This document shows, in pieces, positions 7,265 to 59,689 of a stretch of 64,000 nt of DNA. The DNA comes from Boswellia sacra (Eukaryota; Streptophyta; Magnoliopsida; Sapindales; Burseraceae). Under the pieces are notes generated by a model, which searched no databases, had not been told where the DNA came from, and saw only the letters and a list, made by a program, of their open reading frames with translations. How positions within the stretch are numbered: the first letter of the stretch is position 1; each line of letters begins with the position of its first letter. Where the stretch lies: the NCBI GenBank assembly GCA_013180625.2, contig SNVD02013601.1:1-64000 (forward strand). Reading direction: 5' to 3'. The position numbers and the translations under genes were made by a program.

Positions 7265-7728
7265 TAGGCCCCTGTTTTAGCCTTATCGAATTTTGAAGAA
7301 CCCTTTATTGTAGAATGTGATGCATCTGGGTTTGGAATTGGTGGAATTCTCCAACAAAATAAAAGGCCAATAGCTTTTTTCAGCCAAGGCTTACAAGGTA
7401 AAAAAATTTGTTACTTTCTACTTATGAAAAAGAGATGTTGGCTTTAGTGCTTACGGTACAAAAGTGGAGGCCATACTTGCTTGGTAGAAAATTCATTGTA
7501 AGGAACAGAAAAACTTGAAGCATTTGTGGGAACAAAGGATAACGACAACAGCCCAAGAAAAATGGCTTGCAAAATTAGTGGGGTATGATTTCTCCATAGA
7601 ATATAAAAAAGGAAAAGAAAATGTGGTGGCAGATGCTCTCTCAAGGCAGAGTGACAGTGGAGTAATTACCGCTATTTCCACTCCAATACCGCAATGGTTG
7701 GAATCTATTCAAGATGAAGTGCAAAATA
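7265..7728 (+). pseudogene. Degenerate RNase H region of the chromovirus
   Basis: After the TAG at 7265 the frame continues with a recognisable RNase H start ([13 protein letters not shown]) and later WLAKLVGYDFSIEYKKGKEN and VADALSRQ, the usual end of this domain. Between them are frameshifts near 7400 (an A-run) and near 7505, so at least three lesions are present. At 7728 the frame is cut by a CACTA transposon and resumes at 26,456. Confidence 0.85.
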
Positions 7729-7744
7729 CACTACAAGAAAAAAT

Positions 7745-8850
7745 GTCATATTTGGTGGTCTTTGACCGTCAAATATGACCATATTTGGCGGTCATAAAAA
7801 CGACACCAATGGCACCGCCAAATATGGTATATTTGACAATATTTGACGGTCGGCCAAAACGCCAAATATAGTGTAAATCATATTTGTCACATAAAAGCGC
7901 CAAATATAACTCAAAATATTCTGTACAAAAAATCACATATTTGTCACTTTTTTGACAAATTTAGTCGTTTCTAACGGTTAAAATTTTTAAATTTTACTAT
8001 ATTTATCACTTTTTGACCGCCAAATATGGTTTACTAACGGTCAAATTTTTTAAATTTTATCATATTTGACACTTTTTGACCGATAAATATGATTCAATTT
8101 TGAATTGAATCATATTTATCGCTTTTTGCCCGTTAAATATAGCTTGCTAACGGTCAAATTTTTTAAATTTCATCATATTTGACGCTTTTTGACCGATAAG
8201 TATGATTCCATTTTGAAATGTATCATATTTATCACTTTTTGCCCGATAAATATGACTTGTTAACGGTCAAATTTTTTAAAATTCATCATATTTGACGCAT
8301 TTTAACCGATAAATATGATCTCATTTTGAATTGTACAATATTTATCGCTTTTGCCCGATAAATATGGCTTGCTAAAGGTCAAATTTTTTTAATTTTGTCA
8401 TATTTGACGCTTGTTGACCGATAAATATCATTCCATTTTGAATTGTATCATATTTATCGCTTTTTGCCCGATAAATATGGCTTGCTAAAGGTCAAATTTT
8501 TTTAATTTCATCATATTTAACGCTTGTTGACCGATAAATATGATTACATTTTGAATTGTACCATATTTATCGCTTTTTGCCTCATAAATATGGCTTGCTA
8601 CCGGTTAAATTTTTTAAATTTCATCATATTTAACGCTTATTGACCGATAAATATGATTCCATTTTGAATTGTACCATATTTGTCACTTTTTGCCCGATAA
8701 ATATGGCTTACTACCGGTTAAATTTTTTAAATTTCATTATATTTAACGCTTATTGACCGATAAATATGATTCCATTTAGTATTGTACCATAGTTATCGCT
8801 TTTTGCCCGATAAATATGGCTTGCTAACGACAAATATGGTTTTTGCTGCT
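7745..8850. repeat. Subterminal tandem repeat array (113-bp unit, 7 clear copies)
   Basis: The word GACCGATAAATATGATTCC recurs at about 8078, 8191, 8304, 8416, 8529, 8642 and 8756, a period of 112-114 bp. Each unit also has CATATTTATCGCTTTTTGCC and GATAAATATGGCTTGCTA, which pair as short inverted words. Arrays of this kind near CACTA ends are the usual transposase-binding region. The first ~330 bp hold a less regular version. Confidence 0.9.
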
Positions 8851-11720
8851 TAAGAAAAATAATAGTACTAATTTTTGTTATTTTTCTACCCTGTGCAATT
8901 TTGTCAATACTCCAATTTGGCATATACAACACACACAAATATCTCCTCTCCTAGATTTATCATACACTATTGAAATAAATGATCTGTGTGAGTGTTTAAT
9001 TAAAAAGAGATATAAATGGTTCTTTGTAACAATCATAATAGTAGACATGTTAACAAATAAATTAAATAGTATTAGAAAAAGAACAACTGAAGCAAATTTT
9101 AACCAGCAGCTACACTTTTTACCCGTTGCTCCTGCATTTCAACATTTACTGCAAAAGTAGAGCAGATTGCAACCCCAAATATTAGATTTATAGTACTAGA
9201 ACTTAAGACATTATTTGACAGATCATTTATTGATAACGTCTGTTTTATTGATAACGTCAAGAGTCAAGACACAAATACCTTATCCAATATAACCAAAAAA
9301 AAAATCCATGAAACCTATTTACGAAGTCAACCTACTACTTAACAGTGCACAAAATTAAACTTAAACTTTACCAAATCAACACACTTAAGTTGTTTATAAC
9401 AAATTCAATTTAACTTGTTCATAACAAATTCAATTTACAAATTACTTAAGTAGATTAGCTTAGAAAATTAATCATGTACATGCAATGGTCAACAGTACAT
9501 CATGAACAAATTGTTTTTGATTTAAATTACATCAAAACATAGGAAAGGCAATATGCTTAAATTAAAATCAAGCTAACCAGCCAACTTCTGTGGTACATCA
9601 CATCATAAATTGCCAAAACAAAGAAAAAACGACTAATATCAATTAAAACCCACTTACTAAACCTTGGTTAATATAGAAACTAAAAGCTAAAGATCTATTG
9701 GGTAGTTGAAGAAATTCAACTACAAAAAGACAAACTTGTTTTTCTCCATTTTGTTCATAATTCTAAAAAGAAATTAAATAATCATTTGCAACCACAAGAT
9801 AGTAATCATATTGAGAGAAATTACATTATCCAGAAAAGGTGAAATCATACAAAACTAGCACATTTTACACATGAAAATTTAATTTCAAAGCCAACATCTT
9901 TCTTCCTCCATCCACTTTATTTCTTGCATGTCCACAAAGGAATCAATGCCAAGACATAAGGGGCAAAATTTTACCTGAGTGCACCAAGTTCAATTTCACA
10001 CTTCCAAGTTAAATGTACAAATGGAGTTTTAAGAGAGAAATTGGCATACAAAAGAGGACACCTCAGAGAATTAAACCCAAGGAAGTTCTGGTCGGTATAC
10101 CATGGAGGTTGTGCATGTGTGTTTAAAAAGAGAGAGGAGTCAGTGAGAGGAAGAGATATAGAGGGAGAACAAACATGACTTTCCTTATGAATGCTCTATT
10201 TTCTTTAGCATAACTACAAGAAAGGTTGAAAAAACTCTAGATATAAAACCTAATATCTGTAGGGTAATTATCCTATAGAAAAATTAGCATGTTGAGAATG
10301 CTTGAGATGAGAAAACTTATCTTCACCCATGTATGACAGTATGACGTGTATAATTGAGAGTGTTAAGCTGTTTCACCAATAAATTTGAGATTGGTAATCA
10401 TGTTACAATTGTTTCACTATTCTGGTTCTTCAATACAAATAAAAAATCATCAGCATTCATTTTAGGCGTGGCTTGCTGGGCAGTATGACAGGCATGAACC
10501 ACTAACAACACAAGATGCAATAGAAATAAAGCATATTTCCTACAGAATTAATGCATACACAATGTCATCCAACATACAATTAATAGAAATATATGCACCA
10601 ATCAGTGCAAGAATAACATAACTTAGAGGAAGCACCAAAAAAAAAAAAAACCATGGATTAAAGCAATATATTTGGCCCTCTAACGATCAGCCACACAATC
10701 ATAGAAATTGAAAACAGGAGAAGCTAAGCCAACAATTTGTACCTAAGATTTCATGATACTAAGACCAGGAGGAGTCATGCAGGAACCCTTATAGTAACAG
10801 CTCGAAGTATTAAATGTAGGAAAAAGGATTCTGTAGCCAACAAACCTATTTTTGACATGACGCCTTCCTTAAGTCGAAATTCATAACCCGACCACACATG
10901 AATACCCACATGCACATCTCACATTCATATTGGTGTATAACTGTATATGTTCAAAAACTGTCTAGACAGATTAATCCACTAAACAATAGTAATGCTAGTT
11001 GCAAAATAGTTATTTCATTCACCTTTATTGTTGAAATAATTATCCTAATAAAATTCATCTTTTTATTTTTGTCTCATCAAATTAAACTGTAGATATTAAA
11101 TATAACTAATCATCTTAGGTTGATAAATCTGTTCCATAGTCATGGCATGTGAAATAATGAATTTTAATACAGAATAACTTATTCACAAAAGGAAAAGAAG
11201 AAGACAATAGAAGCATGCATCGATCTCAAATCAAACAAAAAAGGCTATTAGAAATTAGGACATACATTGCAACTTAAAATCCTGAGTTCTTAACAAGTTT
11301 CTAGAAAATGACAATGAGGTGAAACATAAGGATCTAAAGTTGCACCATTTACAAATACTTAGACAGAGAGTAGTTAACTTTCATCACATCACTGAAATCT
11401 ACCAGTATCAAAAGTTGTTTTAGAAACATAGTTGAAGTGCAACAATGTTCTCATGCAACTCAAACCTATGCCTCTTCCCTTCAAGCCATTTCATCTTTAA
11501 TTTTAGATCTTTAAAACATGTCTAGGAATGATTAGAATACACATTTTAAACCATCTGACATTAACCAAAGAAAGAATCCTCATGTAACACGAAATTTCCC
11601 AGAAGTTTATGCCGTTCATGATAAAGAAGATGACTCAAAACAAGGATCAAACGAACAACCTTTAGTCAAAGTTGTATTTACTAAAGCATAGAACCAGTAA
11701 CATACAATTTTATCATTTAC
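8851..11720. other. CACTA interior with no recognised gene
   Basis: AT-rich DNA with short reading frames only. I looked for exon-like stretches on both strands and recognised none. Given its surroundings it may be intron or flank of a captured gene. Splice-like signals are present but not informative. Confidence 0.5.
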
Positions 11721-12835
11721 CACACGAAACATTCCCTGGAGTGAAATTCCATTTCCACATCCGAGTGACATACCATCCAATATGGCAACCTGAAAAAATG
11801 TTATTCACTTAAGTTAACGATGGTAAAAGTTTGAGAAATTTCATATGAGAAAAGGGAAAAAGAAAGAATATATAACTCAAAAGAAAAGAAGAGAGGATTG
11901 AAAAATCATTTTCCACAGTAATAGATAATGTAGTCATATCTTGGATAATAATCCTCAAGTTCTAACTCATCTAAAACCTCAATATAGAAATCTCAAGAAG
12001 AGTTGAATTCTCACGTGGCTTCAAATATGTTCCTTGAAGGTATACAAACTTATATAACGTCTCAAAAAAGCTCTTATAAAGTCTTCAACTTTCCCTGCAT
12101 TCAAGGTAGTAGATGGAGCGTTATGTAAGAAACTTTGGCATACATAATGAAACAACCATTGTCTCATTGGAAAAAAAAAAACTGAATCTAAACCAAATTG
12201 AAATAGAATACTTCGGCTGTCAACATAACAATAATTGCAAGTCATCAATTATTTGTAGGATGGAGTTTTTTTTTTAATTGAATCTTATCATAAAAACCTT
12301 ATATTACTCGTGAGGAACACAGTAATTAATATGAACCATTCTTGGGTTGTTTTATCAAACAAAAATGTTAATTGTTTATAAAATTTACAAGGATTGAAAT
12401 GTGATTCACCTTCCTTAAGTAACTGATAAAGGGCGACGACATCTCCACCAGAGCAGAAAGCCCTGCCACTGCCCTTAAAAAAATAAAAAAAAAAGGCAGC
12501 ATAGACACCAAAAATATAACCAAATTAGAAACGTAAACACAAGCCATAATTCAACCTTAAGCACGTTTCCACAAGCTAATTAAATGAAAGTGACAGAGAC
12601 TTTCAATAACATAATTCAAAAGGTTTATCAAATCAGTTCCATCTACTTGAAACTTTACAACACATTCAAACGTTAAACTTGATATTGAGAACGAAATAAA
12701 GAATTCCTAGAAAACTGATGAAGAGCAATGCGTGCGGAAAGCAAGGTTGTACCTTCATTAATACAAATCCAATATCTGGGTCCTCTTCCCATGAATCCAT
12801 CTAGTGAGGTACAGCAATCCTTCATGGCCATCAAT
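11721..12835 (-). pseudogene. Captured 3-hydroxyisobutyryl-CoA hydrolase-like (enoyl-CoA hydratase family) fragment
   Basis: Four exon-like pieces occur in the right order on the minus strand. They are: about 12835-12753, ending WEEDPDIGFVLMK before a GT donor; 12473-12410, GSGRAFCSGGDVVALYQLL; about 12125-12040, GKVEDFIRAFLRRY; and 11789-11721, VAILDGMSLGCGNGISLQGM, with AG acceptor and GT donor. These are the substrate-binding and oxyanion-loop regions of the crotonase fold as used in plant CHY1/HIBCH-like proteins of valine breakdown. N- and C-terminal parts are missing, so this is a fragment rather than a gene. Introns are retained, which shows genomic DNA, not cDNA, was captured. Confidence 0.75.
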
Positions 12836-13460
12836 GTATTAATTGGCAAAATTGGGAAAAAAATGTATAGTACGAAAAATAGAAACGAATACAGAGAACA
12901 GAACAAACTCAAATCCCAAACAAACAAAAAAAAATGACAATGAACACAAGTCAAAATAGATTAGAAAGCCAAGAACTACCTAAATTAAATTGCTTCACAA
13001 TATGCATAGTTAAATCCCAACTCTGTTGAATTCTTTTCAGGACTGTAATAGGCTAGTAGCAAACCTTTTGATAGTTTTGTTGTCATGATAAATGTCAGTT
13101 TTGAGAAAACATTTCCCACCAGCAATCACAAACAAAATTTGCATTGTTTTGTCCATTTTGTATCAAATTGATCAAGATAGAGCTCTTTTGTCTTTTTATG
13201 TGCCTTATCATAGTTATTAATAGGTCTTCTCTTTTTGTGTTCTCTCGCATGTAGTTTTTCTTAAAAACCCTAACTCGCCTATAAAGAACCAGCTCCTCAC
13301 ATTGTAACAACCTGAGAAATCATACAATTGAAGAATCTGAGGTGATCCAACCATCATGTAAGGAAATATCATTTACGAAAGGGAAGTGATGCACAATGAT
13401 GAAAATTAACAGATGAATTCAGCAACTATCATTTTGCTTCCAAAGAATAAATTAAAAATT

Positions 13461-13494
13461 AAAGAGAGAGAGAGAGAGACACACACACACACAT
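13461..13494. repeat. (GA)n(CA)n microsatellite
   Basis: A run of GA dinucleotides passes directly into CA dinucleotides inside the CACTA element. Confidence 0.9.
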
Positions 13495-13960
13495 ATGACC
13501 AACCAAAAAGAATTTCAAGTTTCTAGCTCTGTTTTCCAAGCAAATTTTTTCTTTACATTTTGCTTTATTTAGTCTTGATTTTCATTTTGTTTTTAGATAT
13601 TTGCATACATGTGGTACCGCTAACTCCATTTCTTCTACCTAATATCATTTGGAGACAAGAGGCACACTTAAAAGATACATCTAAATCCTAAAAATCTATC
13701 AATGTTTATAAAAAAAATTAAAATGCTAAAAAAATATTAGTGCTCAACATAAATGTTAAATCAGTCACCAGATCCATTCATTTGTTCATCAATTAGGCAA
13801 TCACTCAGTATGACTACTCATAATTGTTGCACGCCATTTATATCAACCGCAAAACTCAGTTAAGCAAGAAATATTTTGACCATACTACTTATAGACAAAA
13901 ATGAAGCACTAGAATCCTAGATAATGGAAATTTAATAATATGATGAAGAAAACAATTTAC

Positions 13961-14081
13961 CATCAACCCTCGATTGCGTGAACGAGAAAGATCTTGAATA
14001 TACTTTTCAAAAGCTTCTAATCTGACTTTTCCTTTGACTTCTACAAGTTCAGACCACCTGACATTGGGCACCTTCTCACCA
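13961..14081 (-). pseudogene. Captured SPOC-domain exon
   Basis: A single 121-bp exon is bounded by TTATGTAG (acceptor) and GTAAATTG (donor). It encodes SGEKVPNVRWSELVEVKGKV, then RLEAFEKYIQDLSRSR. This matches, from memory, the SPOC domain of plant TFIIS-central-domain/SPOC (DIDO-like) proteins, where the core reads SGEK...W...VEIKGRVRL.AFEKF...LP.SRSR. No neighbouring exon was recognised. The SPOC assignment is from motif recall and should be searched. Confidence 0.6.
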
Positions 14082-15720
14082 CTACATAACAAGATCATCA
14101 TCAACAAGGTTAACAAAAAAAAAGGAAAAAAAATCAATTAAATAAACTCCAACTTTCATATATTCATTGAAAATATCTTGTGAGGTCATATTATTATCCC
14201 AAAAGAGTTGATGTGATATTCTAACGCTGAATTGATTTCCATAAGGTTCTAACCCCTCCCCGTGATATCAAAATCAATCAGTGTCTAACAAGGCCATGAA
14301 ATTCATGCACACAGAAGCAATAGAAACACCAGCATCAGTTGAGCATAAAAAAAAAAAAGTCTATTTGAAGAATCCAATAATTCATGAATGTTGTCTAAAA
14401 CCAGGGAAACAAATTTTCAAGAAATTACCAAGGGGAAATTGTAGCTGAGCAAAATAAAATCCAATAAAGAACCAACAAAATTTTAGAGAGCAAAATCTAT
14501 GGAAAGAAACAAGAACCAGGAGGTTCGATTAGAAAAGATAAAAGGAAAAATTATCCCAAAAGGAAATAACATCACAGAAGTGCTTCACCTTTTCATATGT
14601 TTGCTATCATTATGTCCAAGAAATTGTTACTATAGAGGGTTTTTTGGGTTTCTGTCTCATTAACTGCTGGATGTTGGATTCATTGATGAAGTTGGCTTAT
14701 GTAAATTCTATTAGAGTTTAATTAGCTGAACATACCTTATTTTTATCACTACAAGGAAATGGTAATCAGCTTACTTTGCATGCACTATGTTGCTTCATTT
14801 GGTTAATGTTTCAATCAACTAAAAAAACCTTTTTTTTCGCTTTGTTTCACTCTCTTTACATATAACCAAATCAACTGAAACTTTCTAGATACAAGTTCTT
14901 TTTCATAGTACTACTCCAAAAATAAGCTGTTTCTGTCATATTACAGTGCCTGTCAGGTGATTTTATAGATTTAGAATTAGAATGTGTCAAGGACTTCCTA
15001 GCAATAAGCACAAAATCAATATGGAAAGTATAAGAAAATTTTAAAACAATCATAAGAAGACAGAGGGATAACAAGGACTATACCACCATTAAACATTTCC
15101 AAGCATGTTGCCCGTCTTTCAACTTATAATATATTGAGTAACAATCCAGAGTTTTCAATGAACTTAAGATTTCCTTCATTTTAATAATAATCTAGTCTTC
15201 TTTTAGTCACAAGAAGTCCAGGGTCCAATTATTCGATAGCAATATAAGGGTCAAACAAACTTAAAAAGGTGAGTCAAAGTTGAAGAATACATAACCTGGA
15301 GCTGCTGATTCATAAAAATAGGAGGCAAAAGGCCACGCAAATAGTGGGCATCTCTCTCTTAGTGATAGCAAGCCCTTTGTTATGGCATAGATCCCCGAAC
15401 AAAGAGTACCTATTGCATGACCACCAAATCCAATCCAAACGAACATTAAATAAAATTCACCATTCAAACATTTTGCTTATCTTAAGATATCAAAAGTAAG
15501 CATCTTTTCAAAACAAATTAAAAGGTGAAGAACAATTATAGAGAAAGCGCAGATCAAACTTAGTATTAAAGGATTATATTTATATTTTTAAAATAACCAT
15601 GAAACTTAAAACGAACTTTTATAGAATTTTCCCAAAAAAAAAGGTGAATGCCATTTTTCCAAATTATGACTAAGCAACCAAAAGAAATTTCAATTCTCAA
15701 AATCTAAGCAATTCACTTAC
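14082..15720. other. CACTA interior, mostly non-coding
   Basis: AT-rich sequence. A minus-strand stretch at about 15420-15290 is exon-like (open in more than one frame, with better base composition than its surroundings) but I could not assign it to a family. Confidence 0.4.
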
Positions 15721-16463
15721 TGGAGTTAGACAACACACCCAAAAATTGCAGCTCAGAGGTTATCTCAGGGCTCTAAAAGCACAGATCTTCAGCCTTGGGA
15801 GCTGCTACGTTCTATTGGGTGTTAAAATTCTCGGGTTTTGTCTTCTGTTCATGCAGTGAATCAACCTCAGTCTCGACTTCTGATTAAGCATTGGGCACAG
15901 AAGAAACCACTTGTTTCCTTTCGGAGCAAGCAAGCATGCTTGTTTTGGAACCAATTGTAGACATTTGCCAGGTTCCTGCAATAACAAACACTACAACTTA
16001 ATCAAAAAGCCAATCTTACGTACGCATATTCACACACATACATACCCCACAAAGTGCTCTGAACTAAACATCCAAGAAACAAAACACAACATAACACAAA
16101 TCAACACACTAGATCAAGAAGAATCTTTTATCTTCCAATAACAGAATGAAAATGAAATCGTTTCCAACAGTTAACACCAAACCCACATCACAACACCACC
16201 AAGTCACAAGTTTTACGACATCTCCAAGAGATAGATCAAGAGAAAACTACAGTAAATGAAAAGGAAAATAGCCTTATGACATAAAAAATAGCAGAGCAGG
16301 CCCAGACAAAAACATGAGATATTTATAAATATAAACAAAACAAACTTGCAAGATCTTGCTGGGCAGAGAGGGATTTATGCATCTCAACAAGCTGTCCACA
16401 AATTTTAGCATAAACAGCAATCTGTTTCCTGAGAGTTTCAAGCTACTCATCAGTCATAACCTT
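15721..16463 (-). pseudogene. Captured WOX13-type homeobox gene fragment
   Basis: The first piece (16463-16346) encodes [19 protein letters not shown] and [15 protein letters not shown], the conserved N-terminal block of the WOX13 clade, with one in-frame stop (CAG to TAG). The second exon (15975-15721, acceptor TTATTGCAG, donor GTAAGTG) starts with NVYNWFQN from homeodomain helix 3. It then shifts frame and continues with SEVETEVDSLHEQKTKPENF and SPEITSELQFLGVLSNS, WOX13 C-terminal blocks. Most of the homeodomain is absent, and helix 3 is altered after WFQN (KHACLLRK where RRARSKRK is normal). WOX13 proteins are plant transcription factors; this copy cannot make one. Confidence 0.87.
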
Positions 16464-16600
16464 GAAATGGCAATAGCTTCATCCAGACCAGGCGGAGGAG
16501 TATCCAACAACTCTCCCAATTTTAGTCCTCCAAACTGTTTGACCAACCAAATCAGCTTTCTCCTGGGCATGTATCGCCCAAAGCAGCTTTCTCCTAACCC
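16464..16600 (-). pseudogene. Captured GET3/ArsA-type ATPase fragment fused to the WOX13 piece
   Basis: The minus strand encodes GLKLGELLDTPPPGLDEAIA, followed by IS. This matches the core of plastid GET3/ArsA-like anion-transporting ATPases (tail-anchored protein targeting). At about 16464 the sequence passes with no intron into the WOX13 start (GTTATGACTGATGAG), and the two frames differ. The 5' side reaches about 16600 before similarity is lost. The family call is from a short but distinctive motif. Confidence 0.65.
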
Positions 16601-16839
16601 TCAGCTTCCTCTCCAACTTAGAATCTAAGTCCCCTTAGAGGAACAAGACCCTTATACAAACTGCAAAAATTCAAGAAAATTGGTCATAGATGCACTCCCA
16701 CACAGTTTTGTTTACATTTCAAAGAACAAAAAGGAGCAAAATTAAATAAGCATACCCGAGATTAATTAAAACACCTATTAAGATTTTTTTTTAAGTTAAT
16801 CTAACAAGGGAATTATGTTGATATAAGTCCTTACATTGT

Positions 16840-18843
16840 ATTTTAGTATGTAGAAAGACGAATAACTAGCAATTGCCACCAAATCACCATTATCAGCCAA
16901 TACAGATTCTGGGATGTTTTAAAAGCATAATTAATATAATCCATAAAGCAATCATAGCTTGAAATGAAAAAAAAATGAAAACAGTCTATTTTAGGCACAT
17001 TAGCACTTACTTTCACAGTAACATCAATCCGTTTAATCAATCTGTATTCAGCACAGTCATAAAAGCCAATAAAATCATTTGAGCACATTGCCAGCAAAGT
17101 GCCCCCATAAGTGCACATTGGATCTATTTCTCCAGGCCAAAGCTATCTATATAATCTACTCACCATCTCCACAGACAACAACAAACCTCCCATTAGGATT
17201 GTGCTTCAAGCTCTGCAAGACAAAAAGAAATACAGTAATAACAATACCAATAACAACAGAGAGACCAAGAGACCATATAAACACATTAGATAAAACCTTA
17301 TTCCTCCATATCATTACACTTTAATTGGAAAATAAAGAAAAATTTGAAAAGTACCAGCTAGTACGGAATAGATTCTCCCATCATGTCCTTTAAACTCTTT
17401 AGAAACTACTATAACTTTTTCATTTGATCTCTACACACCTAAAACCTACTTAAAAAGGTGACTTCTGAAAACCTGATGACTATTAAATGCAAATAGTATC
17501 TGAAATAAATCAAGAATAAAATTTCCAACAGATAGAAAAATAGGCAACGTGGAACAACTAAAATTAGATCTTAAGCAGCAAAAATTGATGGTCTATTTCT
17601 ACATATACATGATTAAAGCAGCCAATGTTTAGATATACATCTATGAATATGCTTGGAAAGATTTACACTAAATAAGACATGGTGAGGAAGGAAGCAGAGA
17701 AAAGATAGAAATGCATAAAACAAAACATATCTGAGACAAATAAAAGCAAGCAGCAAAATGCCAACTCACTTGTGGGTAAAGATCTTAGGTTCCTAATTCC
17801 TTACTAGCCAAAGGCAATCTTTCTCCATCAGTAAGCTAAGATGAAAGAGAAGCCAATTACTTAAACCGTCATCTATTTTAGAAACATAACATGCAGCAAA
17901 GGAAGCAGACAGTCTAAGCTCAAACCTCAAAATCTGCTCCAACACTCTTGATGTTCACAGTTTGAATTTCATTGTGCTTAGCCCATATGATCTTTCCACT
18001 ATTATCCATAGTAGCTATAGGTTCTTCACGACAAATTTTCACCATGATGGTTCCTTCATCATAACCAATTATAATTCTGTGCAATGAAATGAATAGTAAC
18101 AGCGTCATGATAAATAAATAAATAAATAAGAAATTAAAAAAAAAAGTATATTCTTAAGTATGCATTAAATAGAAATTTACAACTTCAGTAGCATATATAA
18201 ATATAACTCTTCAAAAGCTTAACCGAAGAGAATTGATGTTTTTGAAACACTAGAACACATTCTCCAATGTATAGAAATCTACTGGAGACCCCATACATAC
18301 AAGATTATCAGCGGTAAAATTTATATTACATATGTATATGGAGAAACTCACCTGCGAGAACCTTTCATATACCCAATAGCCCAAACTCTTTCCAGACCAT
18401 AATTCAACGTGTTCTCAAGCTTGCAAGACAAGAAACTCAGTTTAGAAACATTTCAAAGAACTCTATATGGCTTAAGCAGATATAACAAATATTCAAAAAA
18501 TAATAATCATGATGACGATTATTATAATATAAAAGAAACTGCAGGATTTTTTTTCACAGGATTTTTTTTCACACATTCATGGTAAAAAAAAAATCCATAG
18601 TTTGATATTAAGCTTTCTATTTCAAAGCATTTACCAACATAAAGGATATAAAGTCTAAATAACCAATGGATAATTTAAAATACATCAAAGCTTGAATTTA
18701 AATTTGGAAATAAAATCTGATTGTGAACAAAAAATTACTAGCAGATGAAAGCCAAGCATAATCCATAAGCTTATAAACCTTGAAAAGTCAATAGAGCAGC
18801 TAAAAGGTTACCTATAAGTAGTTGCATGCCAAATACGAACTGT
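16840..18843 (-). pseudogene. Captured coatomer beta' (COPB2) WD40 gene fragment with introns
   Basis: At least six exon-like pieces occur in order on the minus strand. These are SRTVRIWHATTYR (18843-18806), LENTLNYGLERVWAIGYMKG (about 18425-18345), GYDEGTIMVKI with MDNSGKIIWAKHNEIQTVN (about 18075-17926), TDGERLPLASKELGT (about 17840-17775), SLKHNPNGRFVVVCGDGE (about 17215-17150), and YGGTLLAMCSNDFIGFYD (about 17115-17010) followed by NLYWA (about 16910). These are WD40-repeat and post-WD40 segments of the COPI coat subunit beta', which acts in Golgi-to-ER transport. At least one stop is present (GDGE* near 17150) and both ends are missing. Exon order and introns are preserved. Confidence 0.92.
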
Positions 18844-18955
18844 CCTTGAGCACTGTAACCAAGCAATGTAGGTACCCATCCCCTAAAGAAGCCCCTCACT
18901 CCCTGCTCCTTCAGCAAAACTCCAAAACTAGATGATATGCTCTTGTACTTAGTCG
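18844..18955 (-). pseudogene. Captured mitochondrial phosphate carrier exon fused to coatomer exon
   Basis: The minus strand encodes PTKYKSISSSFGVLLKEQGV, then RGFFRGWVPTLLGYSAQG, a signature of the plant mitochondrial phosphate carrier (MPT/PHT3) inner-membrane transporter. At GYSAQG it runs without an intron into the coatomer exon ending HATTYR. The carrier and coatomer frames differ by one step, so the fusion is out of frame. Only this one carrier exon is present. Confidence 0.87.
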
Positions 18956-20339
18956 GTTCCTCACGGGGCTGCTGGAGTCGGCGCTGCCTCTAGCCTATAA
19001 GTTCAAAAAGTAATTAGTTGTTTTAAAGTGCCAAAGAATTTGTAAAAAGCCTAAAAGATTAAGGTGTAAACCTTATGAACTTTAAGTTAAAATCTCAGCA
19101 AACATTGCTTAGAGAGCAGAGTTAAAAAAGAAAAAAAGAAAAAGTCGAAAAAACCATTTGAAACCTAGATTATACAGCGACGAAATGACACTCTTGAAAG
19201 TTAATATCTAAAGATAGTATCAACCAATCATTCTATAGAAATAGACTCATCTTTTCCAAGTAATTTATCAGGTGTTTGAGTTGCAGATAACAAAAACTAA
19301 AGAATGTGACTAAGATTTCTCGTGCATTTTACACATTTCTATTCAATTGGTAACAAAAATAATAATTAAAAAAAACAAGCTGCAAATTTAACATACCGTC
19401 AGTACCTATAATCTGAAAAAAAAAATAACGAAAGAAATAAGAAATCTAAGTTTAAGATGTAAAAGGAAATGTGAAATGAAACAAAATCCAGATAGTTGCC
19501 TACTAAACGATTAAAGAATGAGCAACTACTATGCCAAAAGAAAGAAAGAAAGATACTCAGCTGGGGTATTTGATCGAACCGGTGACAGGCATTAAAAAGT
19601 TGTACTTGTAGCTGCTAAAATGGGCAGATAAAGAACTTGCTTTTTGATAGACTTTTGATCTAACGTTCATTAAAATGGAAAAAAAAAAAACTCAATTATG
19701 AACACAGGTCAAAGTTTGTGGGCAACTTTTCCAATCAAATGTCCATAGCAAAGGATTTTTGCTCAGATCCAAACCTGTGAAACATTGACTACAAGTCTGG
19801 TGAGCATATATACAAGAGCAACGTGATAGTATAGAATTTTCTTGAACCAGTATGTCCACTAAATCCTTGCATGAGCATTTCCTCCTAAATCCATCTTTAA
19901 TCTGTATAAGAAAATGTCTACCATTGTTATAATCAAAAAGTTATGATTGCATAAGCCATCAAATTATGCATGAGACTTTAAAGGTGTACGGTGCACTGAA
20001 ATTTGACAGGGATAGAACAAGATTGCCTAAAGTTGCATGTTCTCAAAACAAGTTTATAAACATACACTAGCAGAAAACCCACAGACTTTGCCGTAGACAA
20101 TTAAAAGCAACAAAAAAGTGATTTCTTATATATAGAAGCCCAAGGGAATTCTGAATCCTCAGTAATAAGTTTGTACTATTTTTTTTCACTCAATTACTCG
20201 GTCTTCATAAGCTAAGGAGTTTTATAACAAAAATTCTTTTAAACTATTATACAAGACAAAATTATATTTACATTTCTAGTGCAGACTCACAGAACTTATC
20301 AGAACACCTCTAAAGAACTCAGAAAACTCTTAAGACCTA
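18956..20339. other. CACTA interior with no recognised exon
   Basis: AT-rich. A GC-richer patch at 18956-19000 directly next to the carrier exon may belong to a further captured fragment that I cannot name. The rest looks intronic or intergenic. Confidence 0.4.
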
Positions 20340-21910
20340 GATACCTTGGTTCTTTAGTTCCAAGAAGAAACAATGCCACAAAGCAGCTTCCAATAGCAAT
20401 TGAAGCGTATGCAATCCGCCGATACTACATATGGTAGATTAACTCAATAACCATGCCCAGAGGAAGTCTCTTAACCACCAAAATAAAAAATTTTCAATAA
20501 ACATACAAACCTGGTTTTCAAGATCAGTATGTGTTTTTTGCATTGGTCACGCCTAACACTATAAGAGCAATAGCATACAGGCTGAGGTTAGCTTTAGATG
20601 ACCAAAAAAATGAAGCACAACCTTCAATTATGCTGCATGAATTTGGTGAGAAACTGTACATCAAAATATTAAGTAAAGAGAAGAAGTCCATTGTAAAAGC
20701 ATTCCGGCAGTTGGTCAACATTACTCTGCTCATTGAATTAAGCGTAATGCAGTTCACCATTGACCTTCAACAGAATAGTTATAATTTAGATAATAAGTCA
20801 TTCATAATTATAGAAAGCTAAGCAAATGATTGTCTTTCTTCTTTTTGGCCAATGCTCTTGGGCAATCAATTCATTGCCCTGCTTAATGGAATGATTCCTA
20901 TATGATAACATAGAACTCTTCATTTGGGGCCCAAACAAAGAAATATTAATCCTATTATAGATATGCATATAACAATATAAGAGAAAACTTGAAGGGGATT
21001 GTTCTTATGGGTTTTCTAACAATAATGGAAGGAGATCAGCATTTCTATTGAGGGTGGTCTAAATCAAGAGGATCCAAATAACAACACGATACAAAAAACT
21101 CAAAAGTGCTGCTTTGTTCTGCTTAACAAATTTAAAATACGATGCTATCCACATTTGAACCATTAATTACTTAGATGTAAAGATCATTACAGATGGCAGC
21201 AAAAACACAGTATGAGATAGTTTACACGGTCAGTGCAAAAGTAGCAAGGATTCTACAAGGCATGCAACCGCCAAAAACTGAAGAAAACGAAACAGCAACC
21301 ATAACAGACCCTGCCCCATGCCACATTTTGAAATGTCCAAACCTATCGATCTGCCAAGTAAAATATTTGAAAGGAATTTAAAAAAAAAACCAAAAATATA
21401 AAAGGAAAATTTCGAGATTCTAAAAATTACATAAATTCCAACTATGACAAAACAGAACTACTTGATATTGGTTCCCATATATATCACATGGAAGTCAATA
21501 CTTTTTCAAACATATAATAAAAATTTGCAATAACCATGGTCCATGACATAATCACTTGCCTCTAGCTTAAAGGTGAGTGATTCTCCCATAAACTACATTC
21601 TCTTACAACATTATATGCATAGCAGCGGACTTTGTCAATTATTATATTTGCAAAGAAATTAATAACACAGAATTCTAGCTGGGCATTCTCTAGGTCACTC
21701 TAGGTGACAGTATTGTCAAGAGATGTTGGAAAAATAAGCAAGGCGGGGGTTGGAGGTGGTGGCGGGCACGGTGATAACCAAATGTAATAAGCCACTTATT
21801 ATGAATGAAATATATAAAGCATATTTACTATACCAGTTCACCAGTAAATATGGTTGCAAGCCCATCAGCTATCTTCCCAGAAAGTATAACAACAGCAGCA
21901 TCCCTATTAA
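20340..21910 (-). pseudogene. Captured GPH-type major facilitator (MFS) transporter fragment
   Basis: Minus-strand exons in order are AAVVILSGKIADGLATIFTG (about 21905-21840), DRFGHFKMWHGAGSVMVAVS with FSSVFGGCMPC (about 21365-21260), MVNCITLNSMSRVMLTNCRN then ANLSLYAIALIVLG (20760-20545), and IAYASIAIGSCFVALFLLGT with KEPR (about 20427-20345, GT donor). This resembles plant MFS transporters of the glycoside-pentoside-hexuronide:cation symporter group, with hydrophobic helices and the DRFGH loop. An extra ~30-residue stretch interrupts the third exon, so it is damaged there. Confidence 0.75.
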
Positions 21911-22228
21911 ACGAACACAACAAATTAGAAAATTAAAAAAATGTATTAAAAAAAATGAATGAAACCCAACCATTTTCTTATGATTTTAGTTATCTTACAT
22001 TTCATGGTTGGCAGTGCTAACCCAGTCATTTTCTTTCTTTTCTTCTCTATACTCCATAGACACACCCACACGTAATTGAAAAACTACGATTCTCAATTTA
22101 TAGTTAGTTAAAAAACGTCATTGAAACAAGCAATTCTCAGTCAACAATTTTAGTGTTAAACTAAGCAGACAACGCAAAGCCCCAACAACAAACAAATCAA
22201 ATAGCATTACAAGATCAGCTTACCTGAC

Positions 22229-22450
22229 TCAGTGTGGTAAAGATGGTAAAGCCCACATAGAGATCGATAACCTGCTTGAAATACTGATTTTATGCAAGAA
22301 AAAACCCACAAAATGTGTGTGTTTGTGAAGAGATAAATCAAATACTAACAAAAAAACTTGAAGTATTTCAACCCAGATCTGGGTCAATGCGCGATTATGA
22401 ACCAGCCTCTTCACCTTGAAAGCCATCGCACCCAGTTGCTGACGATGCAT
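22229..22450 (-). pseudogene. Unassigned exon-like fragment with a splice donor
   Basis: A 73-codon minus-strand frame starts at ATG 22450 (MHRQQLGAMAFKVKRLVHNR). A related stretch in another frame, QYFKQVIDLYVGFTIFTTLS, ends at a GTAAGC donor near 22224. I do not recognise the family. It sits upstream (on the minus strand) of the MFS transporter exons and could serve as a first exon for a chimeric transcript. Confidence 0.35.
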
Positions 22451-22479
22451 TGATGACTAATCTAGTTTGATGCCGCTCG

Positions 22480-22780
22480 AGCGACAAGGGCAATTTCATG
22501 GTTGATGATTTGGGTGAATGAGGGAATGAATGCTAGGGTAAATTTTCACAAAGGGGGAGAAAATGAAAGATAGAAGGAAATGAAAAAAAAAACAAAATAA
22601 ATATATCAGTCATATATTTGTCACACTTTTTTAAATATGATAAATATGTGAATAGAAAAAGACAAAAAACGAGAAATAAGGTAAGAAAGTGGGTTTGACC
22701 TTTAGATTAAAGTTTTATTTCTCACTTAAAAAAAAAAGAACGTCAAATAAAAAAAATAGAAAGAGATGTTAATTATGGAC
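22480..22780. repeat. Internal copy of the CACTA right subterminal region
   Basis: This block resembles the true right end (26,120-26,440). Shared words include GGTGAATGAGGGAATGA.../GGATGAGTGAGGGAGTGA, GCTAGGG(T/C)AAATTTT, CATATTTGTCA, GATAAATATG, and TATTTCTCACTT followed by CGTCAAAT/CGCCAAAT and AAAAAAAT. It lacks the terminal CTTGTAGTG. It divides the interior into a left module (7.7-22.8 kb) and a right module (22.8-26.45 kb). Confidence 0.7.
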
Positions 22781-22849
22781 CACATATTAGTTTGTATAAG
22801 AATTTAAAATTAAAAAAAAAAAAAAAGAAGTTGAGTTTAAAAGCCTGAT

Positions 22850-23281
22850 TGCTCTTTGCTCATATATGCCTCAGGACATGTTTCACTCTCCCTCTTAGAT
22901 TCCCAAACACTCTATACCTCCATAAATCTCCCTCTTTCTACCTCTCTTTTCACCAACTTCTTCTCTAAAAACAAATCAAACCCTTTAAAAACAAAACAAA
23001 AGAAAAAATGGCTCTTTCCCACTACCTTTCAGAAAGCAAAAAAAAAAATTAAGAATATTGAGATAGAGAAATTCAGAAGAGATGCCAACAGACACGAGTG
23101 AGAACAGCGCTAATGTTGCCGTTAGCAGCAACGCCAGCAACAACATCAACAAGAGACTGACCAAGTACGGAGGAACTCCCCCTCCCGAGCAAGAGCATCT
23201 CCCTTGCCCACGTTGCGACTTCACCAACACCAAGTTCTATTACTACAACAACTACAACTTCTCCCAGCCCAATCCCTCTTA
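22850..23281 (+). pseudogene. Captured 5' end of a Dof zinc-finger gene
   Basis: From ATG 23082 the plus strand encodes a Ser/Asn-rich N-terminus, then [20 protein letters not shown] and [11 protein letters not shown], the start of the Dof DNA-binding domain, ending at a stop at 23280. The first zinc-binding Cys pair (CPRC) is there but the second pair (normally CKSC) is missing, and a conserved Cys in KFCYYNNYN is Tyr. The preceding ~230 bp of CT-rich sequence looks like the source gene's 5' UTR or promoter. It is the only captured fragment on the plus strand. Confidence 0.87.
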
Positions 23282-23619
23282 ATAAAGAAGAGAGGAATCC
23301 CTTCAAATTGCTTAGAAACATGGTGTTTATCAAAAAAAAAAAAAAAAAGAAACAAGAAACAAGTTAAATTTCAACCCTTTTTATGTTGTTTCTTGGTTAA
23401 GGATAAGCATTACAGGTTATTGTAGCAGTTCCTGGCCAACAAAATAAATGATTTCATGGAAAATAGTTACTAGTAGATGTCAATGTTTTTGAATGTCATC
23501 TTCAAATTTTGCATTAGGGAAAGAAAGGAAGGTTGCTTCCTATTGACTTCTTAAGCCTGTGCCTTAATACTAGTGCTACCATCTGAAGATATACTTATTT
23601 TACTTACAGTGTACTTCTA

Positions 23620-24330
23620 CACTAGTTTCCTAAGCTTCTGCCGGACTCTTTTCAAGTTATCAACGGGCATAAAATGCTCCCACTGACACAGCTTCAAAAG
23701 CTCTTTCACCTCTTTCTCAATGTTTCTCCGACTAGCTCCTATATGCTCCATTATTCTGAGGAAAAATGTGGTAAGAACTCCTAAAACAAAATAAAAAATA
23801 TTTTAGAAATCAATGATTGAAAGCAAACTCACCTTGGCAAAAATTGCACATATAACCCAAATACATTGTGTAAAATCTTCTAATTCTCCTCCTGCTAGGG
23901 ACTGCATGATTAACAAAGAATTAGAAATTTTGAAACAAATACTGGTTCACAATAGTGCAACTCAAAAATTAATAAATCAAAAATAAAAATAAAAATGATA
24001 AAATAAGTAGTGAGTAATGAACCTGAACAATGCCATATTCACTCTCCTAAAACATAGCTCAGTTTCGCGAGATATCAATTCCTATTCCTGTTATAATTAT
24101 TAGTTTAATCCTTTAAAAGAACTGTATGTTATTTCCAACAATTAAAAATCAAAGGCTAAATCCAATAGCCAGTCTGTCTTACCTTGATACATTCCCAAGT
24201 ATCTACCAATCATGAATTGACCAAGAAAAGAAAAAAGAAGTTGGAGGCGCCCCCTAAATTCACCGATGCTGGATGTTTGCATGAACTCCTCCAAACTGCA
24301 ATATCCATCCCATTTGATTTTAAAAATAAT
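23620..24330 (-). pseudogene. Captured midasin-like (AAA ATPase) fragment
   Basis: Minus-strand pieces SLEEFMQTSSIGEFRGRLQL with LFSFLGQ (about 24300-24190) and RIMEHIGASRRNIEKEVKEL with LKLCQWEHFMPVDNLKRVRQ (about 23757-23640) look like the linker region of midasin (MDN1/REA1), the giant AAA ATPase of 60S ribosome maturation. The match is from memory of the GEFR.RLQLL and KEVKELLKLCQWE pattern. The intron between them is kept. Confidence 0.6.
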
Positions 24331-24383
24331 AATAATACCAGACATTAACACATTAACATAACTCTTCATCAATCAAAATCAAA

Positions 24384-24790
24384 TTAATTTAGAACACAAA
24401 ATGGCATAAAAAAATGGCATAGCACATGCCTACTTGCAACTCTGACAATGGAAGGTTCAGTACATATCATATAATCCAATAAAATTATTAAGAAATTGAG
24501 GGAAATAAATGAACTAAGAAAAGGTGTGAGAACAAAAGCATCAAGCTTTCCATACAAGTACTGGACAAAATTCCTGTGCATTTACAACAACGATGAATTA
24601 TTTCCACTGTTCAGTGCACTTACCCGTATCTCCATATTTATTTACATATGAACAAGTACATATACATGGCGCGGGGTACTTTAGCTTTTAGCAGCCTAAA
24701 CCATGTACACAACCATATTCTTATGATCTCAAACCTAAAAGAATTAAAAACATAAAATAAAAATTAAAAAAAGGGAAAAAAGCAGAAGCC
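24384..24790. other. CACTA interior between midasin-like and LRR-like fragments
   Basis: No domain recognised; AT-rich and probably intronic or flanking DNA of a captured gene. Confidence 0.4.
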
Positions 24791-24804
24791 CCTCCAAAGA
24801 AACT

Positions 24805-25330
24805 TACAGGCCAACAATTTCTAGATCAAGAAGAGATGGGCAAGCTGATAATGCCGTACAAAGCGATGCATTATCCATCCTTTCATATTGTAAAGGTGCA
24901 ACCTTCTCAAAAGAGACCTTAGAATATAAGAAAGGCAAATATTAAGGAAAAAATAAAATACGTTAACAAATACCAAATTATATACAAGTCAACATTCTCA
25001 AACGTACCCAGCAGCACCACTTTCCCCACTCAATGGGTTTAAGCAGGACCTTGTAAGAATAAAGGACTCTTTCCCTTGTCTAGTCTTTTTATCATTCCAA
25101 GAAAAACTTGATACGTCCACCAAGTTCCTCATAGTATAAACCAATGATTGACAGGACCAAGGAGATGCAGTTGGGCCAGGAACCACATCAAGCTTAAGAG
25201 ACCTGTATAACCATTTAAAAGAGCCAGGATTGTAAAACATAGAAAAGAAAAGAGTTGTATGCCAATCTTTAACAAAAAGAACACCAATGTAGGGAGAAAA
25301 GAAGCTATCTATACAACTAAACAATTAGCC
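24805..25330 (-). pseudogene. Captured F-box/LRR-like protein fragment
   Basis: A minus-strand exon (about 25205-25005) encodes SLKLDVVPGPTASPWSCQSL and SWNDKKTRQGKESFILTRSC. A following one (about 24925-24808) encodes VSFEKVAPLQYERMDNASLC then TALSACPSLLDLEIVGL, a leucine-rich pattern like plant F-box/LRR proteins. The spacing of Leu residues is clear; the exact family is uncertain. A further acidic exon-like piece (EEEEEGRVTAEVRSWHSLHA, about 26045-25985, GT donor) may be the 5' exon of the same or another gene. Confidence 0.5.
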
Positions 25331-26119
25331 ACCTGTTTTGAAGACATTATTGCAGAGATTTTCAAGTCTGCCTCTATATTGATCAAACAAAACACCGAGA
25401 TTTCAGAAGTGCGTACAATCCAAATAGTAGATAACATAAATTAACATAACCCTTCTTTAGTTCCCTGAAGGAAACGAAAAAGTGGAAGTGAGACCCTTTT
25501 ATTCTATAAAACAAAGAGAGAAATGAAGGATGAATTCTCTTATTTTATTTCCTCCCTTCCTCTTTACTTTTCCCCATCTGTCCCTTATCCTTCCCTCATC
25601 CCAAACACAGTTTTTGCATGTTCACTGCTTAATTTTTTATAGAGTATCACAATCACTGATGCAAGAAACGAGACCACTATTCAAGTTATAAATACAGTTA
25701 TTAGAGCACCGGGCAATACAGACAATAGAAAACAGAGAGAAAATACAACTGAAAATTTAAACTCCTTAAATAAAATGATACGGAAAGATCCAATTAGTCC
25801 GGCAAGAACAGAACTAAGAGATCAGAGTTGCAAGTAGGGAATCAATCAAAAGGAGTAAAAATAAAATTTTCTTGAAGACGGACTTTCTTACTGAAGAGAT
25901 TTTCTAACTCGTTAAACAAGGATAATGATATCTTGAAACCGATCTGAAATAGGGAGGAAGGTTACCTATTTGGATTTGGATAAGAGGCGTGAAGAGAATG
26001 CCACGATCGGACCTCAGCTGTCACTCTTCCTTCTTCTTCTTCTTCAAGGTCTACTGTTGGTGTGGTGTTAGGGTTTGGTTGCGTTCTTCGTTTTTGGCTT
26101 TTGACGTTTCAATCTGAGA

Positions 26120-26440
26120 TTTGGATGAGTGAGGGAGTAACTGGTGATTTGGATGAGTGAGGGAGTGACGGCTAGGGCAAATTTTTGCTAAGAGTTGAAA
26201 ATAAAAGATGAAGTGAGAGAGGCAAATGAAAATATATAGAGGAAAACGTGAGAGCCAAAAGGAATGATATGAAATCCATATTTGTCATTATTAAAAAAAG
26301 TGATAAATATGGGTTTAAATAAAGACAAATAGTGATAAATAAGGGAAATATGAGAGTTTGACTTTTAAAATATTATTATATTTCTCACTTTTTTTTTAAC
26401 CGCCAAATTAAAAAAATGCAAAGTGACAAGTAAGGAACAA
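26120..26440. repeat. Right subterminal region of the CACTA element
   Basis: Contains CATATTTGTCATTA, GTGATAAATATGGG and AGTGATAAATAAGGG words like those in the left array, but only two or three copies and no 113-bp period. An imperfect second copy lies at 22,480-22,780. Confidence 0.7.
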
Positions 26441-26455
26441 ATTCTTGTAGTGATA

Positions 26456-27854: not shown

Positions 27855-28259
27855 TGTTATGTGCTCAAATAATAATAATAATAAATTTATAAGAGTCCAA
27901 GTTTCGGTGGACTTAGTCTTAGTGGTATGATAACCAAGTCAAATAAAGTTAGCCTTATCTACAAGTGGGACAAGATTTTCAGGGGTTGTTTCAACTTTTC
28001 TGTTGGGTTGTTCCTACTTTTTTGTTTTTATTCGTTGCAATTAAATGTATAAATAACTCTCCTGAATGGAATGAAGGGCAAAGAATTTAGACTAAAAGCA
28101 AAAGCTTATTTCGGAGGTCACGGTCTTCCTCGAATTAGACCAACTGCATCCATTTCTTTATATATTAAATTTCTTTCCTTGGAATAATAGGTAAGAATAG
28201 ACACAGATTTTCTCCCACCAAAAGACCAATAACCAGGTTTGTTACGTCCACACGTAACA
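27855..28259 (+). mobile_element. 3' LTR (405 bp) of the chromovirus
   Basis: Starts TGTTATGTGCTC and ends CACACGTAACA, giving TGTTA...TAACA inverted ends. It follows the polypurine tract. Its 5' partner and target duplication lie outside the window. The short LTR suits small chromoviruses such as Reina, but the lineage is not proven. Confidence 0.88.
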
Positions 28260-30393
28260 GATCCACTAATATAATATAATAACTTTTAATTAATTCTTTC
28301 AAATTATTTTCTATAAAACAAAATATCTACAACATATCACATATATCAAGTTATTTATAATTAATATTAGAAATACAATAAAAATAATTTAATAAATAAT
28401 TATAAAGTATAGCAAGTTAAATTAAGATGAATAAATATAAATTTATAGTATGGAATTAATTATAAAAAATTAAAAAATTAAAATGTGAAATAAAGATACA
28501 TATATTTAATTTGATTAGTAATCTCCTAATCAATCAAAATAAGCATAGAATTTTTAAAATTTTTTGCGTGGTTAGTAATTAAGTATATTACATATGGATT
28601 CATATTTAATTCAAAATTTTTAGATTAAATTAATTTCTCAAAGTAAACATATTGTATATATGATAATTCAACTCTGCCTTACCTAGAAACGAATTCCTTA
28701 CATTTAATAGTACACTCAATTTAATAATATATTATTCGAATTTGATTATTAACCAATTAAACTACATATATAGCAGTGTCAAATTAGATTGACATTAATA
28801 AAGATAATTATGTAACAATAATATTAGACTTACAACATTGATACAATATAAACTCTATAATATGATGTGATAACTAACATGGCAAAATCCTATTGGAGAT
28901 GTAACTTCTCTTATCTATTTTTGTTTTTTCCCTCCTCTAGTGAATTTTTACCATGTAATTTGCTACATCATGTTGTAGATTTTATGTTGTATGAATGTTT
29001 TAAGTCTGACGTTACTCATTATGCAAATGAAATTATAATATTAATTTGATTCATAACTTCCTAATCAATCAAACTAAATTAAAAAAATTTTGTTCGAATT
29101 TGATTGATTTCGGTTATGATAATAGATTAATAAGATAAATTAATTTATTGATGTACATATATGTTAGAAATTGATAAAACCAACTAAATATAAAAGTAAT
29201 TATTTAATGTACAAGATAACTTTCATAATTATATTAAAATAATTTATAAATATTTACTAGAACTTTAATGGAGAATTTTCATCATTAGAACGTCACACCA
29301 AGCTATTCCATCCTTATTGTAAATATTCATCACATATTAAATTAATAATCCTTCTAATATTTAAATTTGTAAAAAATTATTTAATTAACTTAATGTTAAA
29401 TAAATATTAATAAAGTTATACAAAGTCTTACCCTTATTTATTGTATGCATAAATTATTGTACAAGTATTGATGCATACAAACATATTATAAAGCAATGAT
29501 CTTTATTGGATTCATTAGATTATATGTGTGGTAAAGTAACATGATTTATTCTAAGATTTTAACATTTAATTAATTTGTATGCATATAAAAGCTTTTCAAT
29601 TTGATTCCTAATCAATTAACTACATATAGAAGAAATTGTATATCAGAATTGAATTACTACTAAATCAAATACAAATGAGTTTTTACATTTTGGATTATAC
29701 TGACTTTAATTAATATAATTATATATAAATAAAATGTATAAAGCAATTAGCATTATGATAAAACCAGATAAAATCAACAAAATATGAAAGTTATTTAATT
29801 ATTTCATTACATTAGTATATATTATATACAAAAATGCTAAATGTAATTTAATATAAATTTTATTAAAATATTGATTTTTTTCAACTAATTCTTTCCATTT
29901 CAATTTGATGTAACATAAAATTAATCAGTAAATTACTAATCAACGAAATTATATATGACAATTACATTATATATAGTAATTCTCTTTATTCTTATAATAA
30001 CTATCTATTATTACATCAAGTTATTTTTTTCACTGTGCTAAATATAGCTTTAATAAACTAGTTCTTTCGTAATGGCATATCGCATGTCAATTACATTATA
30101 TATAGTAAAAATTAATTTCCACCTAGATGATTAATTATATCAATATAGTTATAGATTAAAAAATACTAATTAATCATTACATTATATTGTACATAAAAAT
30201 TAATAAATTTACAAATATTAATTATATCAATATTATAATTTGGGGTCATTTTTGGGATGCCAAAAAATGATGTAATAAATGTTGATATACAATTTTATTA
30301 AATATTTAAATATATGCTATGTTAAGGTAGTTATGCCAAAAAGGATTATTACAAAGTGGGTTAGTGCACTGAGAATTTTTTTTCTTTATGTAG
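28260..30393. other. AT-rich intergenic region, no gene seen
   Basis: About 2.1 kb of strongly AT-rich DNA with no coding frame of note, just right of the chromovirus. No transposon ends recognised. Confidence 0.6.
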
Positions 30394-30401
30394 GCTATAA
30401 A

Positions 30402-30586
30402 GAGTAATATTATTCTTACAAACTTTTTATATAAACATTCTTATAAGTGTCATGATTTGATTGAAGGGGTGCATTTCTAATTTTAATTAGATTAATTAAT
30501 ATAGATGCATGACGATTATTCAATAATATCACATAAGTTTATATCAATGTTTTTGTATGGATAATTTGTAAGAGTAGTGTCACTTG
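30402..30586. mobile_element. Probable hAT-type MITE (~185 bp)
   Basis: The left end (G)AGTAATATTATTCTTACAAA and right end, read in reverse, AGTGACACTACTCTTACAAA form imperfect inverted repeats. GCTATAAA flanks both sides (30394-30401 and 30587-30594), an 8-bp duplication. The ends resemble those of the MITE at 39,385. Confidence 0.6.
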
Positions 30587-30796: not shown

Positions 30797-30813
30797 ATAC
30801 ATACATACATACA

Positions 30814-59685: not shown

Positions 59686-59689
59686 CTTT

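What the first reader, a model, noticed from the sequence alone, without database searches (positions are those of the whole stretch)
7729..26452. 18.7-kb Pack-CACTA element carrying fragments of about ten unrelated host genes
Clear CACTA termini with an ATA duplication enclose fragments of F-box/LRR-like, midasin, Dof, MFS-GPH, phosphate carrier, coatomer beta', GET3, WOX13, SPOC and HIBCH-like genes, with no transposase visible. The termini and several protein motifs are seen directly; Pack-CACTA capture is known in plants. This many donors, nine of ten on one strand, is unusual and might yield long chimeric transcripts or small RNAs against the parent genes.
Basis: partly seen in the sequence, partly recalled or inferred. 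Interest (0 to 1): 0.88.

Follow-up and report, generated by a model that had tools for sequence, protein, structure and literature searches.

The report
Fused gene-carrying CACTA transposon in a plant
This stretch of a plant genome is a jumping DNA element packed with pieces of about ten different host genes, and a broken-off transposon end left inside it shows that it was likely built when two smaller gene-carrying elements fused, a known kind of element caught with unusually clear traces of how it formed.

Summary
Window 7729-26452 has inverted CACTACAAGAA ends and an ATA duplication; without it, the surrounding retrotransposon frame is open. A sister copy on C6471 (97% over 18.3 kb, TSD CTA) and a shortened copy on C5047 (TSD AGT) show a real mobile unit, not an assembly join. 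Seven internal blocks match loci with no CACTA end in the 3.5-8 kb fetched; three of these loci show exons beyond the captured edge (F-box by Pfam; HIBCH-like and MFS-like by reading). Introns came along, so DNA was captured. Five fragments are named by Pfam/PDB on the element, F-box/LRR by its donor; midasin, GET3, WOX13 and MFS-GPH rest on reading only. New here: window 22613-22785 is an internal CACTA 3' end lacking its last 29 or so bases. A complete 5.49-kb element (C5876, TSD AGA) carries the same sequence with that end intact, and C5410 carries the other side. So the element is most likely a fusion of two Pack-CACTA elements, as the published tandem-insertion model predicts. Its pieces recur on 70 other contigs of a capped list, in varied combinations. 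Transcription and small RNAs are untested. New member of a known kind.

The parts
7726..7728 (.). target-site duplication ATA (left)
7729..7739 (+). left terminal inverted repeat CACTACAAGAA
   Evidence: the left 400 bp recur at 40 of 40 scored places, window included
7985..8829 (+). left subterminal array, period 113 bp, 7.5 copies
9239..9762 (.). repeated block of unknown origin; 14 other listed places end exactly at 9762 (94-96%)
   Evidence: one (C6560) fetched, no CACTA end in 2.2 kb
9756..11315 (-). block from C2300, about 570 bp downstream of an RRM-protein reading frame
   Evidence: L023, 92-95%; RRM_1 6.4e-16
11314..12794 (-). HIBCH-like (enoyl-CoA hydratase/isomerase) exons with introns; donor locus C6976
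   Evidence: 93%; Pfam ECH_2 2.8e-14 on typed joined exons
13191..14961 (-). SPOC-domain gene fragment; matching locus C6473
   Evidence: 96%; Pfam SPOC 2.2e-6 on typed joined exons
14631..15403 (-). block matching C2967 (gene unnamed); overlaps the C6473 match
   Evidence: 95%
16350..16442 (-). WOX13-like peptide (name recalled; no Pfam hit)
16457..16634 (-). GET3-like peptides (name recalled; no Pfam hit)
17011..18389 (-). coatomer beta' exons with introns; 28 other contigs of a capped list cover 17400-17900
   Evidence: PDB 8d30 1.6e-31 on typed joined exons
18774..18989 (-). mitochondrial carrier fragment (phosphate carrier by recall)
   Evidence: Pfam Mito_carr 5.4e-8
19685..22056 (-). 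MFS/GPH-like transporter fragment (name recalled); donor locus C1194
   Evidence: 91-93%
22613..22785 (+). fusion scar: internal CACTA 3' end without its terminal repeat; junction about 22760-22767
23157..23270 (+). Dof zinc-finger fragment, the only named one on the plus strand
   Evidence: Pfam Zn_ribbon_Dof 3.9e-9
23366..24408 (-). midasin-like fragment (name recalled); matches C1579, C6270, C4700
   Evidence: 93-94%, one short piece 98%
24443..25913 (-). F-box/LRR gene fragment; donor locus C4954
   Evidence: 95%; F-box-like 2e-5 in the locus, outside the captured block
26275..26452 (+). right terminal region ending TTCTTGTAGTG
26453..26455 (.). target-site duplication ATA (right)

Best explanation
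The 18.7-kb stretch is a CACTA transposon carrying pieces of about ten host genes, likely formed by fusion of two smaller gene-carrying CACTA elements, and predicted to be moved by a transposase made elsewhere in the genome. Shown: intact ends, TSD, two further copies with their own TSDs, matching loci for seven blocks with introns included, and an internal 3' end cut short next to sequence that a second CACTA-ended locus carries. Inferred: two gene-carrying elements lay close together in the same orientation; the inner ends were deleted (3' end of the left one, 5' side of the right one); the transposase then used the outer ends and moved the whole as one unit. Earlier captures inside each half were probably made by the same route, and later copies lost or swapped blocks. 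Untested: that the minus-strand fragments are transcribed or spliced, or give small RNAs.
For: Ends and TSD. Joined flanks give one open frame across the site where the other two have stops. C6471 copy, 18.3 kb at 97%, TSD CTA; C5047 copy, TSD AGT, lacking 14494-21779. Scar: window 22560-22767 runs collinear with the 3' end of C5876 and then departs 29 or so bases short of its terminus; from 22760 on it follows C5410. C5876 is a complete element of 5,489 bp (C5876:234048-239536) with TSD AGA on both sides. The scar is also in C6471 and inside the C5047 match. The two parents share exactly AAAG at the join. Matching loci extend past the captured edge: F-box of L035; first HIBCH exons of L027 and outer exons of L026 by reading only (Pfam ECH_2 on the outer HIBCH exon was weak, E 0.27, and the two outer L026 pieces tested gave no Pfam family). 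Transposase_21: 150 of 150 scored candidates (1,265 first-look) over the cut-off in this genome.
Against: The left end of C5410 was not found within the contig, so the right-hand parent is not proven to be a complete element. C5876 has another left end than the window element (CACTACAAAAAAAATG, nearest to that of C3810 at 80%), so it is a relative of the left half, not the parent itself; right ends of five other relatives (C806, C3157, C5542, C3847, C3224) were not found in the 3.5-4.8 kb fetched of each. No left-end contig carries a listed transposase (0 of 40 shared with the 147 contigs of the 150 listed hits), so the helper is not identified. The profile that found the scar included the C5876 end, so its E-value (8e-29) is inflated; the L031 end alone also matched there (76% over 132 columns). 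Plain end-joining or template switching could make the same join.
Confidence: 0.8

Rival explanations
1. One element captured all fragments one by one by gap repair or template switching, and the internal 3' end was copied in as just another fragment.
For: Substitution levels to the matching loci differ between blocks (SPOC 40/1505, MFS 126/2188; p about 1e-5), so captures were probably spread over time; at two block borders the donor matches overlap by a few bases only (9756-9762 and 11314-11315).
Against: The internal end is in the right orientation and exactly at the boundary between two sets of blocks that exist apart on C5876 and C5410.
Confidence: 0.15
2. Chimeric assembly of unrelated contigs.
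For: The assembly has 7,431 contigs and apparent duplicate flanks.
Against: The same internal order at C6471 with other flanks and TSD, and in part at C5047.
Confidence: 0.02
3. A Helitron or a Pack-MULE that happens to carry CACTA-like ends.
For: Both kinds also carry several gene fragments (PMC6431247 passages: up to nine in maize Helitrons).
Against: CACTA inverted ends with 3-bp TSD in four elements (ATA, CTA, AGT, AGA).
Confidence: 0.01

Closest known systems
Pack-CACTA elements (Arabidopsis, maize; PMC8903248 sections 9 and 10 and passages seen; Catoni 2019 not held)
   Same: CACTACAA ends, no transposase seen inside, host gene pieces from several loci, evidence of fusion of neighbouring elements
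   Different: Much larger and with more donors than the two fusion examples described in the section read (Pack-PIF and Pack-Mariner, a few hundred bp; its CACTA examples are in a supplementary figure that I did not see); here a cut-off internal 3' end and a complete relative with that end intact are both visible
Tgm-Express1 of soybean (PMC1947982, abstract and passages seen)
   Same: CACTA element with exonic and intronic pieces of five unrelated host genes; there they were spliced into chimeric transcripts
   Different: 5.7 kb and five genes against 18.7 kb and about ten; here no RNA data, and the insertion lies in a retrotransposon, not in a host gene intron
Tpn1 family of Japanese morning glory (seen only as cited in PMC8195511 passages)
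   Same: Shared subterminal regions with varied captured gene fragments in between
   Different: Not compared at sequence level
Gene-carrying Helitrons of maize (PMC6431247 passages seen)
   Same: Many gene fragments in one element, up to nine cited
   Different: Other transposition mode; no TIR or TSD (recalled)

Membership tests
CACTA (En/Spm) superfamily | CACTA terminal inverted repeats | tested here: met
CACTA (En/Spm) superfamily | 3-bp target-site duplication (feature recalled) | tested here: met
   ATA; other copies CTA, AGT; relative AGA. One relative, C3810, does not match
CACTA (En/Spm) superfamily | multi-copy with repeated subterminal motifs | tested here: met
CACTA (En/Spm) superfamily | moved by a Transposase_21-type transposase | tested here: inconclusive
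   150 of 150 scored candidates over cut-off in the genome, none on a listed left-end contig
Pack-CACTA | host gene fragments between the ends, from identifiable loci | tested here: met
Pack-CACTA | no transposase gene inside | tested here: inconclusive
   no frame over 110 aa; Pfam run on 10 ORFs and 10 typed peptides only; contig C6568 is not among the 150 listed hits, but 1,265 candidates existed
Pack-CACTA | gene pieces transcribed or spliced | not testable with these tools
   no RNA data
Helitron | no TIR and no TSD, insertion between A and T (feature recalled) | tested here: not met

The most novel reading that the evidence does not exclude
In this plant, large gene-carrying CACTA elements grow mainly by fusing with one another: whole captured gene sets are passed on as modules and recombined, so a pool of Pack-CACTA elements works as a shuffling system that assembles many-gene arrays with nearly all pieces in one reading direction.
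Probability: 0.4. Interest if true: 0.65.

Novelty: new member of a known kind. Interest (0 to 1): 0.45.

Why it matters
A published model says that Pack-type transposons gain DNA when two neighbouring insertions lose their inner ends and move as one. This element shows such a leftover inner end, a complete relative that still has that end, and the sequence from the other side, in one genome, so the order of events can be dated and tested. Such arrays could also be mistaken for genes in annotation.

Tried and rejected
Rejected: ordinary gene cluster, assembly chimera, Helitron (see rivals). Considered: selection on the captured exons. Exon and other substitutions against the matching loci are close in most of the six blocks with exons marked (MDN 7/132 against 48/909, SPOC 8/243 against 40/1505, FBL 3/90 against 53/1376, C2967 block 3/90 against 29/680, HIBCH 6/201 against 58/1274) and lower in exons for MFS (4/182 against 126/2188); counts are too small to claim anything. 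Considered: strand bias as a mechanism. Nine of ten gives p = 0.02, but modules travel together, so the fragments are not independent. One related element, C3810, has both ends but its flanking triplets do not match (TTT against TTA).

Led nowhere: PDB search with the midasin peptide (one chance hit, E 2.8) and with a peptide at 10401-10547 (one chance hit, E 0.037); Pfam on the retrotransposon flank pieces; right ends of five relatives. The Dof block also matches C2698 (94%, no CACTA end in 2.8 kb), but the reading frame there looks as broken as in the element (my reading), so I do not count it as a donor. An empty-site search in the genome and a search for the coatomer donor (PF04053) did not complete by the busy machine (empty site; PF04053).

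Full report
Observation. The element runs from 7729 to 26452 with CACTACAAGAA at both ends, inverted, and ATA on both sides. The surrounding DNA reads as a Ty3-type retrotransposon polyprotein (recognised from recall; Pfam gave no hit on the two short pieces); with the element and one ATA left out, one frame is open across the site in the 120 residues shown, while the other two have stops. Just inside the left end lies an array of 7.5 copies of a 113-bp unit.

The genome. The window lies in G000, 638.6 Mb in 7,431 contigs. The first 400 bp match 40 of 40 scored places, the window included, at 91-100%, out of 1,572 first-look candidates. Some places share the same flank (C5047 with C6194, C6191 with C3264), so counts of places are not counts of insertions.

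Copies. C6471 holds an almost complete sister, 18.3 kb at 97% with TSD CTA; over the 8,884 sites (window 8860-17783) aligned in one script the substitution level is 1.9%. C5047 holds a copy with TSD AGT that lacks 14494-21779. These speak against an assembly chimera.

Donors. Seven blocks match loci that show no CACTA end in the 3.5-8 kb fetched: C2300 (9756-11315), C6976 (11314-12794), C6473 (13191-14961), C1194 (19685-22056), C2967 (14631-15403), C4954 (24443-25913), and midasin-like C1579, C6270 and C4700 (23366-24408). The three midasin-like loci align with each other over 2.7-4.2 kb at about 93.5%, so which of them is the donor is open. C6473 and C2967 overlap in 14631-14961, so that part is held by both. 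C4513, in contrast, is another mosaic that joins the HIBCH and midasin blocks and carries left-end-like repeats. For C4954 an F-box lies outside the captured part; for C6976 and C1194 further exons outside are my reading, with weak or no Pfam support. Matches run through exons and introns alike, so DNA and not cDNA was captured. Substitutions per site outside marked exons run from 2.7% (SPOC) to 5.8% (MFS), all above the 1.9% between sister copies, although for SPOC the difference from the sisters is not significant (p = 0.058).

Names. Pfam or PDB support Dof, mitochondrial carrier, HIBCH-like, SPOC and coatomer beta' on the element itself. Midasin, GET3, WOX13 and MFS-GPH are recalled readings; their searches gave nothing useful.

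Fusion scar. At 22613-22785 the element contains a second CACTA right end in the same orientation as the true one, without its terminal repeat (the profile held the C5876 end, so the E-value of 8e-29 is inflated). Contig C5876 has this sequence with the end intact, inside a complete 5,489-bp element with TSD AGA on both sides that carries the MFS block. From 22760 on, the window instead follows C5410, which carries 22760-26452 with the same kind of right end; C2794 matches the same stretch. The parents share AAAG at the join. The sister on C6471 has the scar too, and the C5047 match runs through it. This is what the published model predicts: two neighbouring elements, loss of the inner ends, then movement as one unit (PMC8903248, section 9 read; PMC13317346, passages). 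The left end of C5410 was not found, and C5876 has another left end than the window element.

Shuffling. The places, put into one map, lie on 71 contigs including the window's and show many combinations of the same blocks, with recurrent edges such as 13185, 14491, 16455/16468 and 18845. Each search scored only 40 candidates, so these are lower bounds, and some contigs may be alleles. The coatomer stretch 17400-17900 is covered on 28 other contigs, and 13 matches end exactly at 18845. C1049 carries this module together with a further host fragment, a FAD-binding (P450-reductase-like, name recalled) piece, on the same strand; no CACTA end was seen in the 9.9 kb fetched there.

Function. No frame exceeds 110 aa, so a long chimeric protein would need splicing. 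Some splice-site motifs remain next to captured exons (for example GTAAGT after one coatomer exon and TTGCAG before another). In soybean Tgm-Express1 such pieces were spliced into chimeric transcripts (PMC1947982, abstract and passages). Whether that happens here is unknown.

Literature. Searches: Pack-CACTA, CACTA with chimeric transcripts, Tpn1, CACTA with host gene fragments, CACTA with same orientation. Seen: PMC8903248 sections 9 and 10 and passages, passages of PMC1947982, PMC13317346, PMC8195511 and PMC6431247. I make no claim that such a scar is absent from print.

Noticed in passing
window 9239-9762: A 0.52-kb block; 14 other listed places end exactly at 9762 and start at 9239, 9291 or 9295. 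It may be a small mobile element of its own.
   Followed up: partly
window 28001-34000 and 58001-60000: Very A+T-rich stretches (about 18-29% G+C) with tandem arrays near 58.7-59.2 kb.
   Followed up: no
window 47590-47912 and 48220-48731: Two tandem arrays with periods 65 and 192 bp.
   Followed up: no
L028 (C1049) 8568-8885: A FAD-binding (P450-reductase-like) fragment next to the WOX13/GET3/coatomer/carrier module, an extra host fragment in a related mosaic.
   Followed up: partly
L036 (C1579) 3234-3398: A glycosyl hydrolase 35 fragment beside midasin-like sequence in the same orientation, so this locus may itself be a captured mosaic and not the original midasin gene.
   Followed up: no
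window 16455-16468, L028 5358-6193: Relatives hold about 830 bp between the WOX13 and GET3 pieces that the window element lacks; the edges overlap by about 14 bp, which suggests a deletion between short repeats.
   Followed up: partly
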